From positions 186,001 to 250,000 of the forward strand of contig OX637620.1 in the NCBI GenBank assembly GCA_951802195.1: a DNA stretch of 64,000 bases, given 5' to 3'. This document shows, piece after piece, positions 4,257 to 51,764 of the stretch; within the stretch, counting starts at the first letter, position 1; every line of letters starts with the position of its first letter. A model generated the notes under the pieces. That model saw nothing but the letters and a program-made list of their open reading frames with translations, was not told where the DNA came from and did not search any database. Position numbers and translations under genes: made by a program. This DNA is from Tausonia pullulans (lineage: Eukaryota; Basidiomycota; Tremellomycetes; Cystofilobasidiales; Mrakiaceae).

Positions 4257-6287
4257 GGTGTGAGTGGGGCAGGTGGGTGGAGGAGTGAGGTGAGACGAGG
4301 CGAGCGAGGTCTAAAGGTAGTGTGTCCCAAGAGAGTCGAGGCGACGGCCAAGGGCAAGAACCAAGCGGGCAAGCAGCCGCGGGGGGAAGCAGGCAAGAGA
4401 ACCAAGACAGGCGCGGCCGCAGGACCAAGAGAGAGGGAAGAGAGGACGACGACGGTCAGTGACCTGAGAACTGGGTAGAGAGATAGACCAACAGCGCCAC
4501 TTCACGGTATCGAACCAAAGAGGGGGGAGAAAGGCAACGGTCGGAGGAACCGCTAGGTCATCGAAGCCACCTCGTTCGTCCGCCGGGTGTCCTCCCGTTG
4601 CACGCTACCAAACAGCACCCCTTGCCCCTCTCGCCCTCGGCCTGCAGGCCGAGGGTCGTGGCCAGCGACTCCCACGAACCCTCTGGACAGAGACCAAGCA
4701 GCCGGGTTACTCACAATGGCTGGCGTATGGACGTTGGCCTCAGGAAGGATAACAGCGGCAGAAAGAAAAGGAGCTGTCGGCCGGAGGATCGGAGCGAAAC
4801 GGATAGCGCTCCACGAGCGAGGACAACTGCCTTGATGCTGTCAGTCGTTGGTCGGACCTGAACGAATGCGACGAAGGCTCTCGGAGAGAAATCAGGCCGT
4901 GCTGGTAGAGGTCCCTGCTCTGGGATTTGGGAGGACGGGATGCGAAGGAGCCAAGGTGGTCGGTCTGGCGAATGGTCGTTGGGCGCAGACAGGGGAAGAC
5001 GAAGGGATGATGACGCGGAAGACAGGCGCCGAGTCCTCTGCCTTCCTCGGTCGCCACCGGCCTGGGAGGGACGAGCCTTTCGGCCATTGGACCTGGGGGC
5101 TGAGGTGTGACTCTGGTCTTTTGTTAGTCAGACCCAGAGCAAAATCCAAGGGCGTCGTCGTCCTCCCCTTTCCTCCCCGTCTGCCTTCCCGCACTCCCTT
5201 GCTCGTCCCAAGATATCAGCTAGAGTCTGAGCCGACCCACCGCGAAGGGGCGGCCGTCGCCACCCCTGGGGGAGGATAGGATGGATGAGGGCTTGGTAGC
5301 TGTTTCTGGCTCTCGCCTCCCAACCAGAAGCAGCCACCACCGGCAAGGAAGTAAACATAGATCGCCTCGCTCGGACGATGCCGACGATTCGTTCATTCAT
5401 CCCGGCAGGCATGCAGCTGCATAATCGAGGGAATTCGAGCGCAGTGGCTTGCTCAGCGTTATGTATACATAGTGTGCAAGCTGCGCACACCAATATTATT
5501 AGCGAAGAGACGCCAACGAGCTGCGACTTGATCGGGCCCTTCATCGAGAGTCCTACCAGCACCCCGTCGAACCCGAGAATGGTCGGGCTTGGAAGCAAAC
5601 ATCAATCTAGAGATGAAGGGAGTTGAACCCCGGCGCCCGGCTCGGCCTTCATTCGTTCAGGCTTCTCTGGCCACCGTACGCCGTTTGCGATCTGCCTAAC
5701 TGAAGAGAACATAAGCGATTCATTTCTCTCAGGGACGTGAAGGCTAGCCAGTCGTAAAGAAGGCGAAAAGAAGAGCCTTATGCTTGCCCGCTGCTGTCGC
5801 CTCTCCGGGAAGAACAACTTCCGGCCGGCTCATCGACCGGAACTTGACTGGTCGACAGATTTGAAGGTCGATCTGTCGAGTATTGCCATATGCAGCAGCC
5901 AGGCTCTACGCGTGTGCTTGTGCTTGTACAAAGATGGCGTTACCTTCAGTTTTCCCCCCTCGGCATGACATCCAGGCTTTCATCTCGACTCAAGAATTGG
6001 GAGACTCAAGTCATCTACAACCGTGTGAGAACTTTGAGCATAGCGATGGTTTACCAAGAGAGGGTCCTCTCCCTCTTTCATACCTGTCCATTTCCTTTCT
6101 CATGAATTCTGATGAGTCTTGAAGGGAGAGGAAGGGAGAGAAGTCATCTTAGACCCCTGAAGGGCGGAGCAGCAGCGCTCAATCTTCCGCATCTTCGCTG
6201 ATCTTCCGGTGTCCACTGAAGGACGCGGTCCTTCTTCTTCTCAGCAATCCCTCCTTCCCCTAGACGACCACCTGCCTTCTCTCCATC
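4257..6287. other. Intergenic, 5' of the PH gene to the first COX-like gene
   Basis: No ORF here has a recognisable domain or a convincing spliced continuation. The part next to 4256 must carry the PH-gene promoter and leader. A perfect 9-bp inverted repeat lies at 5852-5879. Pyrimidine-rich sequence at 6140-6287 is probably the leader of the next gene. Confidence 0.5.
5852..5879. repeat. Inverted repeat, 9-bp arms, 10-nt loop
   Basis: TCGACAGAT at 5852-5860 and its exact reverse complement ATCTGTCGA at 5871-5879 flank a 10-nt spacer. It lies between genes; the function is unknown. It could be a hairpin or a dimeric protein-binding site. Confidence 0.6.
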
Positions 6288-45543: not shown

Positions 45544-46000
45544 CGATTTCTGAAGGCGAGGGATCATCAGCCATGTCACATCAATGAGGAGACGCACTGT
45601 GAAGAGTGGCTCGCCTTTTCGCTCATAGTCTTGAATGATGCGCGAGGGTGGTGGAGGTCGATGGGAAAGCGGCGAACGGCGGTCTCGCCCGTCCCTCTCG
45701 AATCATCGAGGCCACCCGCTTGACTACCGGATGGATTGATCTCCTCAATCGAGTACAGTCGGCCCTTGCACGACGATACAATCGGGCCACATGCTTGTTT
45801 GTGTGCGTTACAGGCGTCATCTCCGCTGTGCGCCTTCCCAGTGTGGACCGGTGTAGCGTCACATCCGCAAAACGGTCTATGTGTGCATTTGTTTCGACAT
45901 TTTCACGTATCTAACCACCCATAACTTCAAGGGCATAACAGTCGTAGTTGATGGGCGGGAGCAGAAACGGGAGGAGGAGATATAAGAAGAGCTGGCGTGC
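45544..46000. other. FRG1 upstream flank
   Basis: Holds the FRG1 promoter. Short ORFs on both strands lack domains. Towards 46000 the composition becomes A/T-richer where LINE-derived sequence starts. Confidence 0.4.
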
Positions 46001-46384
46001 CTTGCCCACGATCCTTATCTCATACTTTATTAAAATGTCACGTATAATATTGTTGCGAGAGAAGCGGCCGTACATCTACTCTCCTCTTCCTACAGACGAG
46101 GCTCAGGAAATGGTCATGGGCCGATGCCAAAATAAATTTATAGAGGGTAGGGGGATCGGAGGAGCTTGCGAGAGACGAATGTTGCGGCAATAACTCAGAT
46201 GGCGCGCACCACAGGATAGGGCTCGTCGGAGAGATGAAAGAGGGACTCGACGGAGGCAAGGATACAGAGACAGAGCACGTATTGCGTGCTCTCTTTTTGC
46301 AACATGAGCGTCCTATTAACGAGCGAGACTGATGCGGTATGCTTGCCCGGGTGAAGATCAGAGGTAGAAATGATTGGCGTCGAC
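46000..46384 (-). mobile_element. LINE relic (copy D): decayed 3' end of an ORF2
   Basis: Read on the minus strand from about 46365, the sequence gives LHPGKHTA, then VESLFHLSDEPYPVVRAI, parallel to LHPGKHTA and VESFFHLFDEPCPVVRAI near the end of ORF2 in the full copy nearby. A stop falls straight after VRAI. Similarity then fades through an FVRRRR-like region. It is a 5'-truncated, diverged member of the same family in the same orientation; its own tail is not recognisable. Confidence 0.75.
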
Positions 46385-46465
46385 TTATTTTATTCTATTT
46401 GTATTGTACTTAAGTCAGTCATGGGTCATACGTAGAAACAAGGTAACCCCATGAGATATAGCAAT
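46385..46465 (-). repeat. LINE 3' tail (copy C), diverged
   Basis: On the minus strand it reads TATCTCATGGGGTTACCTTG, then TACGTATGACCCATGACTGA, then a degraded A-rich end (ACAATACAAATAGAATAAAA). It matches the last ~55 bp of the full LINE copy with several changes. It lies directly after that copy's poly(A). Confidence 0.8.
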
Positions 46466-46707
46466 TCGTAGCTGTACACTTTTTTTTTTGTATTTAAGTC
46501 ATGAGTTATACGTAGAGAACGAGGTAACCCTATGAGAGATAGCGAGTAGTAGCCAGATAGAGGGGGAACGAAAGTAAAGAACAGGTAGAAGGAAAGCAAA
46601 ATATGGGTGTGGACATAGGCCCATTAAAGAGGTAAGATATTAAGATGACCAGCTACATCAAGCAGTGGCTATGGACCAGCCATACTTCCCCACCCCAGAC
46701 CTGCTTG

Positions 46708-49700
46708 TCACCCAGGATCGGTGTCGGCGCCGACCGTAGCTCCATCCATCTGGTCCCTGCGAGCTATCCACCTCGTACTCGACTGCCAGTGTGTCTGCCG
46801 GATCGTAGACGCGATCTTGCGGATTTCCTCGTCCGTGACAGGATCGAGGGCTGCGATCTTGCTGTACCTCCGCCTTCGGACGAATCGCCATGTCCGGGCA
46901 ACAAAGATGCAGTGGAAGAGGAAGACCCCCCTCGGCGGCGACGGCGTCGGGCAGACAAGCGTCTGGAGGGACGGAGGATGGGAGGGGATCGAAGGCGAGG
47001 CACGTGCAGCAGCAGCAGCAGACCAGATAGCGCGCACGACGGGACACGGCTCGTCGAAAAGGTGGAAGAAGGACTCAACGGGGGCCATCAGGCACAGCGC
47101 ACATCGCTTGGACCTGTTGTGCGGTGTAGCGGTGCCGTCGGCGAGGAATGGCGCAGCAGTATGCTTCCCTGGGTGGAGGCTATACAGCGAGAATCGGTGG
47201 GCCAAGTCGACGTCCTCGGGCGACGCTCGGGACACGGCCTTGAGCAAGCACCACTGACGCTTCCAGTCGACCTTGGTAAGCGCCGGGAAGTGGTCCTGCC
47301 AGCCCTTTGGGATGATGAGGTCGCGATTGGCTAGAGTACGACTGTGTGCGCCGTGGGGCGCACGAGGAACGTTCAGCCGGCCGAGGTTTGTGTGGCTAGG
47401 GTGGAGACCCAGCCGCAACTGGCTATCTGTACCGAACGTAGACATCCAGTGGACAGCGTTCCTCCAGCGGTCTTGATTCCAATAGCTCATGTCAAAGCTG
47501 ATTTCTTCGAACCATGCCCGGAGGTAAGCCTGCCATCGTGCAGGGAGAGCTCCTTGGAGCTTTGTGATGGCATTCCACCAGACGGCTGGGAAGAACCATT
47601 GACCTTCCACTGGGGAAAGGAATACGCCTAACCAGCTGAAATTGGCGGGCCGGGGTCCTCTGATGAACTCTCCATCCCGGAAGATGGTGCGAGTCATCAT
47701 TCTATAAGCCCCTGGGTCGAGGCTCATGGTATGGATGATCCGCTTGCGAATACGGATCGATGCGGGAAGCTCTGGTTGGAAGAGCACATCGCCAGCCCAC
47801 TGGGCGCGCGCTTTGATGAGCCGGAATCGGAGTGGCGTGAAGCCGAAGCCGCCGAGGTCTCGAGGGGTTTCTAGACGTTCTCTGCTGACGTCGTGGTGTT
47901 TCGATCGGTAGAGGGACTTGTAGGCCGTTGCCTCGAGGTCTTCCAGGATATCGTCTGGGCACGGCAGAAAGCGGTCCAGGTAGATGATCTTCGAGTAGAT
48001 GTACTGGTTGATGATGTTGCATCGCGCAAGGAGAGGGAGGTCGTGCAGCGGGATGCGCGCGAGTCGAGCCTTCAGTTTGCCGATGACATCTCGCCAGCAA
48101 GCAGGCACGTTGACCGTGCGACCACATGGAACGCCGAGGAAGTCGAATGAGTGCGTTTGGACGCGCCATTCGTGGTACCTCGTAGGCGCCTCTGTCCGAC
48201 ATGTACCTAAAGGATAGAGGAGTGATTTTTGGTAGTTCAGCTTGCTTGCTGCGGCTTTCTCGTACTCGCGGAGGCAGGCCGTCGCCTTGTCGACCTCCGG
48301 CCAAGACCGACACCGGATACTTAGATCGTCTGCAAAGAGAAGGACCTTCCGCTCGTGTAGAGGGGGCGGATTGGCTGGTGGGAGGCGATGGCGGAGCATA
48401 CATGCCAGCGGCTCCAGAAGGAGGGCGAAGATCGTCGGTGCCGCGGGATCGCCCTGTCGGACACCAGACCGGATGTCGATGGCTTGGCCCATCCATCCGT
48501 TGATCATGAGGCGAGCTGTCTGGGAGGTCATCGTTGAGATGATCCACGCGGCGGCGCGCGGACCGAACCCCATGTGGCGGAGGCAGGGGCCAACAAAGTC
48601 GTGCGATACTCTGTCGTATGCCTTCTCAAAGTCGACTTGGGCGAGGACGCCAGGTAAAAGGTCTTCGTCGTCAATGGCGAGCTGGAGAGAGGAGATGTTG
48701 CGACCCGAGTCGCGGCCAGGGAGGAAGCCTGTCTGGTCCCCGTCGATGAGAGTGTCCACGACGGTGAGCAGGCGGCTGTTGATGGCAAGGGAGAAGATGC
48801 GAGCGTCAACGTTGATGAGCGAGATCGGACGATAGTTGGCAATCTGATCGCGATCTCCCTTCTTCTTGAAGATGAGATGGATATGGGCCTCGCGCTGTGA
48901 GGCGGATCGGAGGCCTGTCTCCGGGACGAGGTTCAGCAGACTGAGGAGGATCGGGCCGACGGCAGCCCAAGTGGCCTGGTAGAACTCGACGGGGATCCCG
49001 TCGCTTCCTGGTGTCTTGTTACGGTTCGATCGGAACGTGGCCCGCCTGAGCTCTTCCAGTTCGAAGGGTTTCTCGAGGGTCCGACTCTGGGAGTTGTCGA
49101 GTGTGTTGGTGGCATATCGGAGGACGTTGGCGTGCTCGGCAGCTGGCGTCGTCTTGGTCTCATAGAGAGTCGAGTAGAAGGCGTGTGCTGTAGCTAGAAT
49201 GTTCTCGTTGTTTGCGATGGCTGTGGCTGCTGGGTTGTCGAGTGGCCGCAGGGCTGCGATAGTGTCGGCCTGGCGGACGATCTTGAGTCGCTGCTTGACG
49301 GCATACTCGCTTGTGTTGGCTGGTTCGAGATGGGCTCGGAGAGCGTGGCCTTGGAGGATGGACCGAAGTGAAGGGCCTCCTGACACTCTGCTCATCCGGG
49401 CGAGGTGTCTTGAGATGTCAGATGCATGCTCCGCTATCTGAAGCTTGGTCTTGTCCCAGGCCTCGAAGGGGTCTCTGATCTCGGTGAGCGCATCTTGGTA
49501 CCACTTGGGAACGTGGTAGAGGAAGTACTCAACAAAACCGGTAATCTTCAGCAGGTGTGTGCCAATCTTGTACGATCCAGGACCGTGCTCTATTGCACCG
49601 GGGAAGGTGAGGCTGAGTGCGATCGGCTTGTGGCTGGAGTACAGGTGGCCGGTCGGACGTGGTAGGAAGCGTTGTCGCACGGCTCGGCTAGCGAGTAGAG

Positions 49701-50385
49701 GCGACAGGTAGAAGCGATCAATGCGGCGATCTGCTCGCGTGATGCCAGTATAGTTTGTGTATTCGCGCTGGAGCGGATATAGTGATCGGTATGGGTCGGA
49801 GAGGGCAAAGTCCCGGGCCAGCCGGCACATTTCCTCCTTTCCCGCGTTCTGGGTAAATTGGCTCATCCCGTCGAGGTAGCTGTCCTCCACACAGTTCCAG
49901 TCCCCGCCCAGGAGGAGAGGGATGTCAGAGTGGGCAGGTATCTTGCGAGATAGAGTAGAGAGGAACTCCTTTGTCGAACGGCCGTTCGTCTGGCTGTCTC
50001 GGCAGGGGACATAGACTGCAGCCACTCTGACGGCTTCGCCGGCGATGACGAACACGGCATCCGTGAGGTTGGTTCGTAAGATGGGGGAGGAGCGGGAGAT
50101 GGATCTGATCCTAGTTGGAGGGGTATCGGGAGGAAGGAATCGAGAGGCCTGCCGCCAGAGGATGGCAGTCTGGCAGCCGACCGTAAAGATCGAGCCGAAG
50201 CCCACATCTTCACACTCAGTTGTCCAGGTCGCTACCTGATCTAGTGTTGTGCATGCCACTTCTGAGAGAAGGTATATGTCAGCCTTGGATCGTGAATAGA
50301 GGGAGAGGAGGAGACTGCGGGCGCGATCTCGCGTGAACACCCTCTGGATGTTCGCCGCGACGATCTGTACATCGTTGTACACCAT
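46708..50385 (-). CDS. LINE ORF2: endonuclease and reverse transcriptase, 1225 aa
   Basis: Apurinic/apyrimidinic-type endonuclease at residues ~5-260: N of AANIQ, E42 of SEV, GGDWNC (D162, N164), and the SSHKP end near 250. Linker to ~450. Reverse transcriptase ~455-720: KTPGSDGIP, NYRPISLINVDARIFS, GFLPGRDSGRN, QVDFEKAYDRVSH, SGVRQGDPAAP, and catalytic LLFADDL at 682-688. The C-terminal region has a cysteine/histidine cluster, CALC...ESFFHLF...C. The enzyme nicks target DNA and primes cDNA synthesis on the nick. The start codon overlaps the ORF1 stop as TAATG, suggesting translation by termination-reinitiation. The frame is intact. Confidence 0.95.
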   Translation of the reverse strand: MVYNDVQIVAANIQRVFTRDRARSLLLSLYSRSKADIYLLSEVACTTLDQVATWTTECEDVGFGSIFTVGCQTAILWRQASRFLPPDTPPTRIRSISRSSPILRTNLTDAVFVIAGEAVRVAAVYVPCRDSQTNGRSTKEFLSTLSRKIPAHSDIPLLLGGDWNCVEDSYLDGMSQFTQNAGKEEMCRLARDFALSDPYRSLYPLQREYTNYTGITRADRRIDRFYLSPLLASRAVRQRFLPRPTGHLYSSHKPIALSLTFPGAIEHGPGSYKIGTHLLKITGFVEYFLYHVPKWYQDALTEIRDPFEAWDKTKLQIAEHASDISRHLARMSRVSGGPSLRSILQGHALRAHLEPANTSEYAVKQRLKIVRQADTIAALRPLDNPAATAIANNENILATAHAFYSTLYETKTTPAAEHANVLRYATNTLDNSQSRTLEKPFELEELRRATFRSNRNKTPGSDGIPVEFYQATWAAVGPILLSLLNLVPETGLRSASQREAHIHLIFKKKGDRDQIANYRPISLINVDARIFSLAINSRLLTVVDTLIDGDQTGFLPGRDSGRNISSLQLAIDDEDLLPGVLAQVDFEKAYDRVSHDFVGPCLRHMGFGPRAAAWIISTMTSQTARLMINGWMGQAIDIRSGVRQGDPAAPTIFALLLEPLACMLRHRLPPANPPPLHERKVLLFADDLSIRCRSWPEVDKATACLREYEKAAASKLNYQKSLLYPLGTCRTEAPTRYHEWRVQTHSFDFLGVPCGRTVNVPACWRDVIGKLKARLARIPLHDLPLLARCNIINQYIYSKIIYLDRFLPCPDDILEDLEATAYKSLYRSKHHDVSRERLETPRDLGGFGFTPLRFRLIKARAQWAGDVLFQPELPASIRIRKRIIHTMSLDPGAYRMMTRTIFRDGEFIRGPRPANFSWLGVFLSPVEGQWFFPAVWWNAITKLQGALPARWQAYLRAWFEEISFDMSYWNQDRWRNAVHWMSTFGTDSQLRLGLHPSHTNLGRLNVPRAPHGAHSRTLANRDLIIPKGWQDHFPALTKVDWKRQWCLLKAVSRASPEDVDLAHRFSLYSLHPGKHTAAPFLADGTATPHNRSKRCALCLMAPVESFFHLFDEPCPVVRAIWSAAAAARASPSIPSHPPSLQTLVCPTPSPPRGVFLFHCIFVARTWRFVRRRRYSKIAALDPVTDEEIRKIASTIRQTHWQSSTRWIARRDQMDGATVGADTDPG

Positions 50386-51498
50386 TATTCTTCCATGTCC
50401 TCGGCTTCAGCCAAGGTCACGAGGGTATGCTCGATGGATGCCTGGGAGGACGGCGTGGAGGGGATGAGAGAAGGAGTGGAGGGTGGGTTCAGGAGGAGCG
50501 AAGATGGCGGGGATGGCGATGGGGGTGGGGGAGACGATGGTGACAGGGGGGGTGGAGTGGGAGGTGGATGCTCGTCTTCGACCTGCATCCCGTCTTCTGT
50601 CCTCGCCATACCCCCCTCGTTGTCATCCTCTAGGGCGCTCAGGGTGAGAACGGGTTGCGAGCCCGCATTGCGCGGTGCTTGCTCTGAGTGGGAGTGGGAG
50701 GAGTCGGCGTGGGCAGGAGGTGTGGTCACCTCCGTCGCGGCTCCAGTCGGTCTGTTCAGTGACCTCCTTTTGGATCTTTGTACGAGCTGGTATCCATCCA
50801 GGTCTGGTCCCGGTTCGACAGGCCGTTGGGGGGGTCCTTCGGTTGGTGCTCGCGCACTCGCTGGAAGGTTTGCCTTCGGACGACCTGGGCATCGGGTCGA
50901 TGGGTGGGCGCGCGATCCGCATCCGCCACACTCTGGAGCGGTGGGACACTTGGCACGAGCGTGCTCAAATGAGTGGCAGTAGTAGCAGTATGACGAGGCT
51001 TGACGGGATGGAGAGTTTGTCGCAGAGCTAGTCTGGACGGGTTTGAAAATGACATCGCAGTTGACCCAGCCGGGGAACTGCTGGGTGAAGGCATTTGCCC
51101 TCGGCATCGTCTTGGAGCCAGAGAGGTCGAGCAGGACTCTAACCCGGCCAGTTGGGGAGGTAGGTGCGCTGGGGTGGAATTGACGCTGGAAGAAGATGAC
51201 TCTGTCTCCGGAGGCCTCTACCTGCTTGCGAAACTCATCCTCCGATCCTTTGATGTTTTCGAAGTTCTTCAGCAGGCCTTCCTGCAGGAGCTTGTTTTGG
51301 GTATTGTAGCACGCGTGAATCTGAGGTTTCACCCCTCTCACGTTCAGCGGGAGGGACTGTAGTTGGGTCAGGATGTCTTGAGTGTTTTCTTCAGGGTCGA
51401 CTTGGAGGAGCATTCTGTCTTTGGGGTCCTTGAAAGGACGGATCAGGGTGGTCAGCCGTTCATCGCACTTGCCAATTGCGATAGAGATCTCAACACAA
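50385..51498 (-). CDS. LINE ORF1, 5'-truncated, nucleic-acid-binding
   Basis: From the first ATG (51413, MLLQVDPEENTQD) it is 342 aa, but the same frame continues upstream as VEISIAIGKCDERLTT...KDPKDR to the poly(A) junction at 51499 without a start, so the real N-terminus is missing. Two adjacent CCHC knuckles are clear: C-YY-C-HSFE-H-ARAK-C and C-GG-C-GSRA-H-PSTR-C. The C-terminal 150 residues are Pro/Ser-rich and acidic. ORF1 proteins of this kind coat the element RNA. The stop overlaps the ORF2 start by one base. Confidence 0.92.
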
Positions 51499-51570
51499 TT
51501 TTTTTTTTTTTTTTTTTTGTATTTAAGTCATGAGTTATACGTAGAGAACGAGGTAACTCTATGAGAGATT
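51499..51570 (-). repeat. LINE 3' tail (copy A), severely truncated, with 20-nt poly(A)
   Basis: T run 51499-51518, then the reverse complement of the family tail (CTCATAGAGTTACCTCGTTC and CTACGTATAACTCATGACTT). Only about 50 bp of the element are present. It is almost identical to the tail of copy B (one change, AGAG for AGGG, in the compared part), so the two are close in age. Confidence 0.88.
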
Positions 51571-51571
51571 G

Positions 51572-51612
51572 TCTCTAACAACAAAATGTTGGGCAAATAT
51601 TGCTGTTAGAGA
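51572..51612. repeat. Inverted repeat between LINE tail and tRNA
   Basis: TCTCTAACA (51572-51580) and TGTTAGAGA (51604-51612) are exact complements. A smaller CAACA/TGTTG pair lies inside. It may be a hairpin of the original target site; its role is unknown. Confidence 0.6.
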
Positions 51613-51660
51613 TATTTGATGAACAACACGGACGTCAATAACAAGTGGCTTTGTCTGCTC

Positions 51661-51764
51661 GCCCTGCTAGCTCAATCGGTAGAGCGTCAGACTCTTACAG
51701 CAGGTGCTCAACTCACTTTCAAACGGTGATCTGAAGGTTGGGGGTTCGACCCCCCCGTGGGGCT
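51661..51764 (+). tRNA. tRNA-Lys (anticodon CUU) with 31-nt intron
   Basis: Acceptor 5' strand GCCCTGC pairs with GTGGGGC (two G-U pairs). The D arm is GCTC-AATCGGTA-GAGC with an A-box. Anticodon stem TCAGA (51687-51691) pairs with TCTGA (51730-51734). The loop carries CTT at 51694-51696 followed by A37. An intron at 51698-51728 interrupts directly after position 37, the canonical site. T arm GGGGG-TTCGACC-CCCCC follows. The discriminator base read here is T, which is unusual. A T-run terminator is not obvious directly downstream (CGTTTCCTTTTG). Confidence 0.93.

What the first reader, a model, noticed from the sequence alone, without database searches (positions are those of the whole stretch)
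46000..51764. Head-to-tail array of four LINE copies ending next to a tRNA-Lys gene
All copies lie in the same orientation. Reading the minus strand: a 50-bp tail with A20 (copy A) abuts the 5' end of a ~5-kb copy B. The A10 of B abuts a diverged tail C, and the decayed A-rich end of C abuts an ORF2 relic D. Each junction is poly(A) directly followed by the next copy. Random insertion would not usually give four abutting copies, so the element may prefer A/T runs, its own poly(A) tail, or a site near the tRNA gene (as Dictyostelium TRE elements do). Tails A and B are nearly identical while C and D are diverged, implying repeated use of one spot over time.
Basis: partly seen in the sequence, partly recalled or inferred. 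Interest (0 to 1): 0.82.

Follow-up and report, generated by a model that had tools for sequence, protein, structure and literature searches.

The report
tRNA-gene-targeting LINE stacks in yeast
A jumping gene in a Mrakia-like yeast, together with a small hitch-hiker that shares its tail, keeps inserting about 86 bases upstream of tRNA genes and pointing away from them, so that copies pile up in order of age, a habit that the papers seen describe for elements of this kind only in social amoebae.

Summary
The array is real. Four same-strand LINE remnants (A-D) lie directly upstream of a tRNA-Lys(CTT) gene (window 51661-51764, +). The host is a Mrakia-like basidiomycete yeast (BiP 97% identical to Mrakia frigida). 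The tail has 414 matches genome-wide. In 30 of 32 informative tail clusters (35 of 47 fetched) the nearest copy starts within 150 bp upstream of a tRNA gene on the opposite strand. At 37 such tRNA genes of 15 isotypes the distance is 59-119 bp, median 86, and does not depend on tRNA intron length, so it is set from the 5' side of the gene, not from the B box. In arrays the outermost tail is the more diverged in 20 of 24, and 29 of 35 innermost copies are followed by more element sequence. Arrays therefore grow by repeated insertion at a site anchored to the tRNA gene, not by landing in poly(A) tails. Many short 'tails' elsewhere are a SINE with its own head and the LINE's 3' tail, at the same site. 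This works like Dictyostelium TRE5, at another distance, in a fungus, with a SINE partner. My searches gave no published fungal LINE of this habit. Tethering by Pol III factors is inferred.

The parts
51661..51764 (+). tRNA-Lys(CTT) gene with a 31-nt intron; the anchor (target) of the array
   Evidence: ARAGORN with introns; Rfam RF00005 53.7 bits
51573..51660 (.). 88-bp spacer between tRNA 5' end and the innermost LINE copy; no LINE match
   Evidence: within the 59-119 bp (median 86) seen at 37 tRNA genes
51499..51572 (-). copy A: 5'-truncated LINE tail (54 bp, 98% identical to the L019 copy) plus A20; innermost, taken as the youngest from position and poly(A) length
51492..51498 (-). 7-bp remnant between A's poly(A) and B; candidate imperfect target-site duplication
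   Evidence: no perfect duplication found
46490..51491 (-). copy B: LINE, 5'-truncated by 794 bp compared with the copy in L019, 93% identical to it
46480..46489 (-). poly(A) tail (A10) of copy B
50388..51490 (-). ORF1 of copy B, N-terminal part missing; zinc-knuckle-like Cys/His motif read by eye; the ORF1 of the L019 copy has no Pfam match at E <= 1
46708..50391 (-). ORF2 of copy B (1227 aa, open): reverse transcriptase, N-terminal endonuclease-like domain (below Pfam cut-off); its ATG overlaps the ORF1 stop (TAATG)
   Evidence: Pfam RVT_1 1.4e-24, Exo_endo_phos 7e-4; human L1 ORF2p 1e-44; junction
46385..46479 (-). copy C: diverged LINE tail
   Evidence: 11 edits in 52
46143..46357 (-). copy D: decayed ORF2 relic, 65% identity to LINE positions 5084-5294 of the L019 copy

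Best explanation
The array is the product of an L1-type non-LTR retrotransposon that integrates selectively about 60-120 bp (median 86) upstream of tRNA genes, in the opposite orientation to the tRNA. Shown: site, side, strand, independence from tRNA intron length, age order, and a SINE partner that shares the tail and uses the same site. Inferred: the LINE ribonucleoprotein is tethered by the Pol III initiation complex on the 5' side of the gene (TFIIIB or polymerase III), nicks at a roughly fixed distance with little sequence demand, and target-primed reverse transcription inserts a copy whose head faces the tRNA gene. Each new copy lands at nearly the same place, in front of or just inside the previous one, and pushes it outward. 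The 'poly(A) directly followed by the next copy' junctions follow from that.
For: Fetched loci: of 50 ARAGORN tRNA genes with at least 150 bp upstream, 38 have an opposite-strand element start within 150 bp and 0 a same-strand one; I dropped one of the 38 (L040 tRNA-Ala, weak 66% hit), leaving 37 with median 86, IQR 80-91, range 59-119. By tail cluster: 35 of 47 fetched, 32 informative, 30 positive. Distance against tRNA gene length (72-151 bp): slope -0.009 (p 0.92); in the 35 genes with a B-box match the sd is 11.6 bp to the 5' end and 24.5 bp to the B box. Shuffled control: 12 of 56 listed tRNAs have an opposite-strand exact tail within 1 kb upstream, 0.44 expected, maximum 4 in 1000 rotations; within 300 bp 7 of 56, 0.16 expected. 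Age order: in 20 of 24 arrays the outermost tail is more diverged, in 3 less, in 1 equal. 150 bp behind the innermost copy: element sequence in 30 of 36 (29 of 35 without the dropped row), starting within 22 bp in 27 of the 29; 60 bp in front: 4 of 36. A filled tRNA-Ala site (L038, duplication CCCTCCT) against an empty paralogous site (L040).
Against: L018: a SINE with no tRNA found. L013: only a tRNA-like sequence with a B box, 74 bp from the SINE head, that ARAGORN and Rfam do not call. 13 of 50 tRNA genes in fetched loci are not occupied. The one 5S hit and the two U6 genes listed have no exact tail within 5 kb, so targeting of Pol III genes in general is not shown. Same-strand upstream tails (4 of 56, mean 0.46) and downstream tails (4 of 56, mean 0.89) within 1 kb also exceed their rotation means. 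Stretches were chosen by an exact tail, so occupancy is not a genome-wide figure; only 14 of the 63 tRNAs lie in them. Duplications were found by script at 19 of 36, three of only 5 bp. No biochemical evidence for a TFIIIB contact.
Confidence: 0.93

Rival explanations
1. The element prefers A/T runs or its own poly(A) tail (Candida Zorro3 is reported to be flanked by poly(A)), so copies chain tail to head.
For: Junctions look like poly(A) then next copy; 77 of 190 exact tails have a same-strand tail within 1 kb, against 3.15 at random.
Against: The outermost tail is the more diverged in 20 of 24 arrays; chaining onto poly(A) would put the newest copies outermost. Duplications are varied and few are A-rich. 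Element sequence lies behind the innermost copy in 29 of 35 and in front of it in 4 of 35. The tRNA-anchored distance is unexplained.
Confidence: 0.03
2. Insertion is random and selection leaves only copies in harmless places such as tRNA flanks.
For: Compact 23.9-Mb genome; tRNA flanks are often harmless sites (general knowledge).
Against: Selection does not by itself give one strand, one side and a median distance of 86 bp with sd 11; the rest of the 64-kb window and six HSP70 stretches from four places hold no copy.
Confidence: 0.02
3. The arrays are mainly tandem duplications of LINE blocks by unequal crossing-over, not repeated insertion.
For: C2:364-401 kb has units 6.1-6.3 kb apart, 98.7% identical at a shift of 6096 over 10 kb, with six equal-scoring ORF2 copies; C11:445-468 kb looks alike from coordinates.
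Against: Many arrays have copies of different type, length and divergence with a short spacer or duplication between them; without the two long arrays 60 of 169 tails still have a same-strand tail within 1 kb.
Confidence: 0.04
4. The ruler is set by the B box (TFIIIC) and not by the 5' side of the gene.
For: TRE5-A needs an intact B box (PMC5006619 section 11; PMC5911963 passages); L013 has a B box without a called tRNA.
Against: Distance to the B box varies twice as much as distance to the 5' end (24.5 against 11.6 bp) because introns do not shift the insertion. TFIIIC may still be needed to load TFIIIB.
Confidence: 0.05

Closest known systems
TRE5-A and other TRE5 elements of Dictyostelium discoideum (L1 type)
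   Same: Upstream of tRNA genes, opposite transcriptional orientation, two ORFs with an L1-type reverse transcriptase, oligo(A) end (PMC5911963 passages and section 11).
   Different: Median 86 bp (59-119) instead of 44-54 bp (40-54 in the review's table); basidiomycete host; ORF1 and ORF2 joined by a TAATG stop-start overlap where TRE5-A needs a -1 frameshift (paper); 5' leader of about 33-35 nt; a tail-sharing SINE uses the same site. Kinship to TRE5 by sequence not tested.
NLTR-A and NLTR-B of dictyostelids
   Same: Non-LTR elements upstream of tRNA genes (PMC5006619 section 9).
   Different: 2-6 bp and about 50 bp upstream, with an RNase H domain after the RT; none found here by Pfam at E <= 1.
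Ty1, Ty3, Tj1, Ylt1 (LTR retrotransposons of yeasts)
   Same: Integration upstream of tRNA genes; Ty1 and Ty3 through contact with Pol III factors (PMC5911963 section 11).
   Different: LTR elements with integrase, within about 10 bp of the start site (Ty3, Tj1, Ylt1) or over about 1 kb (Ty1).
Zorro3 of Candida albicans
   Same: L1-type LINE of a yeast with a very short 5' UTR (PMC7175516 passages).
   Different: Flanked by poly(A) on both sides; the passages seen do not report tRNA targeting.

Membership tests
L1-type non-LTR retrotransposons | ORF2 with N-terminal AP-endonuclease-like domain and RT closest to L1 | tested here: met
   RVT_1 1.4e-24; Exo_endo_phos 7e-4, below its cut-off, so the endonuclease is weakly supported; human L1 ORF2p 1e-44, R2-type about 1e-15
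L1-type non-LTR retrotransposons | 3' poly(A), target-site duplications of varied length, frequent 5' truncation | tested here: met
   Poly(A) runs of 6-20 in 36 innermost rows; duplications of 5-17 bp in 19 of 36 by script; truncated copies
TRE5 (Dictyostelium) | Upstream of tRNA genes in opposite orientation | tested here: met
   37 of 50 tRNA genes in fetched loci (38 before dropping one weak hit), 0 same-strand within 150 bp
[quoted passage not shown]
   Median 86, IQR 80-91, range 59-119
TRE5 (Dictyostelium) | Sequence kinship with TRE ORF2 | not tested
   No TRE sequence was in hand; none of the 48 homologues listed carries a dictyostelid name, but most carry no name; nearest two are unnamed (37-38%)
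TRE5 (Dictyostelium) | ORF1 protein binds TFIIIB; B box of the target needed | not testable with these tools
   Needs binding and insertion assays
Zorro3-like poly(A)-flanked LINE | Poly(A) on both flanks | tested here: not met
   5' flanks printed for 36 innermost rows are not poly(A); one (L019) ends in five A's within its duplication
SINE with a LINE-derived 3' tail | Short non-coding element with its own head and the 3' end of a partner LINE | tested here: met
   Recurrent breakpoint at position 4930 of copy B numbering and a shared head of about 130 bp with tandem repeats; a diagnostic tail base in most copies shown
SINE with a LINE-derived 3' tail | Pol III promoter in the head | tested here: inconclusive
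   B-box-like GGTTCGACC cores seen by eye; no Rfam match to the SINE copies of L012, L019 and L023

The most novel reading that the evidence does not exclude
A fungal L1-type LINE and a tail-sharing SINE have, independently of the social amoebae, evolved integration at a fixed distance upstream of tRNA genes, read from the Pol III initiation complex. The SINE rides the LINE machinery to the same address, and the stacks at tRNA genes are ordered age records of past insertions.
Probability: 0.75. Interest if true: 0.78.

Novelty: new variant of a known kind. Interest (0 to 1): 0.66.

Why it matters
The four tRNA-targeting non-LTR elements in the 2018 review's table all come from social amoebae (PMC5911963 section 11). 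An independent case in a fungus would show that L1-type elements, which cut with their own endonuclease, can acquire Pol III-linked addressing more than once and at a different distance. Because the tRNA genes here carry introns of different length, the genome itself separates a 5'-side ruler from a B-box ruler. The stacks give a relative order of insertions at each target, and the SINE suggests that the address comes with the borrowed machinery. A yeast with such elements could be studied genetically.

Tried and rejected
Poly(A) self-targeting: rejected by age order and flanks. Random 5' truncation for all short tails: rejected; a breakpoint at position 4930 recurs with a shared head. Zepp-like chaining (recalled; one search gave a listing only) was set aside on the same grounds as poly(A) targeting. 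U6 and 5S as further targets: no exact tail within 5 kb of the genes listed (compared by eye). L013 and L018 searched for an RNA gene: none called. ORF1 structure: mean pLDDT 36.5, no use. Relatives in viral contigs: none. A host protein of the window gave one unnamed 98% match, so BiP was used. The tree of ORF2 (26 of the 48 hits plus the window) has long branches and 8 of 24 inner forks open; it shows only that the two unnamed proteins are nearest. Paper searches for a fungal tRNA-targeting LINE. Corrected on recount: duplications 19 of 36 (not 20), flanks 29 of 35 after dropping the L040 tRNA-Ala row, which repeated its neighbour's flank; the six HSP70 stretches overlap and come from four places.
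Full report
What is there. On the minus strand, reading away from a tRNA-Lys(CTT) gene (window 51661-51764, +), lie an 88-bp spacer, copy A (54 bp of LINE tail plus A20), 7 bp of other sequence, copy B (5.0 kb, 5'-truncated by 794 bp compared with the copy in L019, ORF2 open, A10), a diverged tail C and an ORF2 relic D. ARAGORN without introns missed the tRNA; with introns and with Rfam it is clear. It is the only tRNA gene that ARAGORN finds in the 64 kb, and the three LINE matches of the window at E <= 1e-4 are at it.

Host and element. The genome is 23.86 Mb in 21 contigs. A BiP fragment is 97% identical to Mrakia frigida and 94% to Phaffia rhodozyma, so the host is a Mrakia-like basidiomycete yeast; this rests on one protein. 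ORF2 has RVT_1 and a weak endonuclease match and is nearer to human L1 ORF2p (1e-44) than to R2-type proteins (about 1e-15). Its best relatives are two unnamed proteins at 37-38%. The genome search listed 38 matches to ORF2, over its full length at 94-100% identity, window copy included, three of them with a stop inside; that is a lower bound. The 27-mer tail with up to 3 mismatches has 414 matches, the reversed control 0.

A second element. Many short copies elsewhere start at the same tail position (4930 in copy B numbering) and are preceded by a shared head of about 130 bp with tandem repeats. This is a SINE-like element with the LINE's 3' tail. A one-base difference marks most copies shown of the two kinds (a diverged SINE at L019:2763 is an exception): 125 exact SINE-type and 123 exact LINE-type 35-mers genome-wide. 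The window's copy A has the LINE-type tail.

Targeting. The 100 listed exact tails form 47 clusters; stretches for 35 were fetched. Three (L012, L029, L042) end before the informative side. Of the other 32, 30 have a tRNA gene whose 5' end lies within 150 bp of the head of the nearest copy, on the opposite strand; L013 has only a tRNA-like sequence with a B box and L018 none. Of 50 tRNA genes with at least 150 bp upstream, 38 are so occupied, 37 after I dropped a weak hit, and none by a same-strand element. The distances have median 86, IQR 80-91, range 59-119; SINE heads were counted from CCACCA, and two preceding A's probably belong to them. Five further loci from then on other contigs or places: two show a tRNA gene at 66 and 71 bp, in three the LINE runs off the stretch. 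ARAGORN names 15 standard isotypes among the 37, so the signal is not one gene's sequence.

Controls. Against 1000 rotations of 190 exact tails on contigs 1-11, 12 of 56 tRNAs listed have an opposite-strand tail within 1 kb upstream (mean 0.44, maximum 4); within 300 bp 7 of 56 (mean 0.16), with no same-strand or downstream tail. Within 1 kb, same-strand upstream tails (4 of 56, mean 0.46) and downstream tails (4 of 56, mean 0.89) are also above their means; I put this down to tRNA clusters, untested. 77 of 190 tails have a same-strand tail within 1 kb, against 3.15 at random (60 of 169 without the two long arrays). These are lower bounds, since only exact 35-mers and the 63 best-scored tRNAs count; the lengths of contigs 6-11 were approximated. 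Six HSP70 stretches from four places hold neither tRNA nor element.

Ruler. The occupied tRNA genes are 72-151 bp long because of introns. Insertion distance does not follow length (slope -0.009, p 0.92), and in the 35 genes with a B-box match its spread is 11.6 bp from the 5' end but 24.5 bp from the B box. The ruler is on the 5' side, where TFIIIB sits (general knowledge); contact with TFIIIB is inferred.

How arrays form. In 24 arrays with two or more tails the outermost is more diverged in 20, less in 3, equal in 1 (p 0.0005), and its poly(A) run is shorter in 18 and longer in 5. The 150 bp behind the innermost copy hold element sequence in 30 of 36 rows, 29 of 35 without the dropped row, starting within 22 bp in 27 of the 29; the 60 bp in front hold some in 4 of 36. 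Short duplications were found by script in 19 of 36, of varied sequence, three of only 5 bp. One tRNA-Ala site filled (L038) and one paralogous site empty (L040) show the duplication CCCTCCT. So new copies land at nearly the same tRNA-anchored place and push older ones outward. This explains A and B fresh, C and D decayed. One long array (C2:364-401 kb) is in addition a tandem duplication, and C11:445-468 kb looks alike.

Comparison. TRE5 of Dictyostelium lies 44-54 bp upstream of tRNA genes in opposite orientation and its ORF1 protein contacts TFIIIB (PMC5911963, passages, section 11; PMC5006619, abstract and sections 9 and 11). The review's table lists four non-LTR tRNA-targeters, all from dictyostelids. 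Ours works like TRE5 at another distance; membership in TRE was not tested. Paper searches gave no fungal LINE of this habit, within a library of open papers and going by listings, abstracts and the passages named.

Noticed in passing
G000:C2:364000-401000 (L023-L025): Tandem array of 6.1-6.3-kb units, each a LINE plus SINEs, 98.7% identical at a shift of 6096 over 10 kb, upstream of one tRNA-Ile gene; looks like unequal crossing-over on top of insertion. C11:445-468 kb looks similar from coordinates.
   Followed up: partly
L019:8800-9991, L012:3200-4050, L036: The SINE head carries a variable number of direct repeats of about 50 and 95 bp with GGTTCGACC cores that resemble a B box.
   Followed up: partly
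L018:3495-3723: A SINE copy with no tRNA gene found; its flank has a TATATA-like stretch. A U6 gene lies 5.3 kb away.
   Followed up: partly
L013:3791-3873: A SINE head lies 74 bp from a tRNA-like sequence with a B box that neither ARAGORN nor Rfam calls; possibly an unknown Pol III gene.
   Followed up: partly
G000:C6:991766-1002694: Pairs of tRNA genes repeated at a shift of 9766 bp, as in a tandem segmental duplication.
   Followed up: no
window 50388-50391: ORF1 stop and ORF2 start overlap as TAATG, which suggests reinitiation rather than frameshifting.
   Followed up: no
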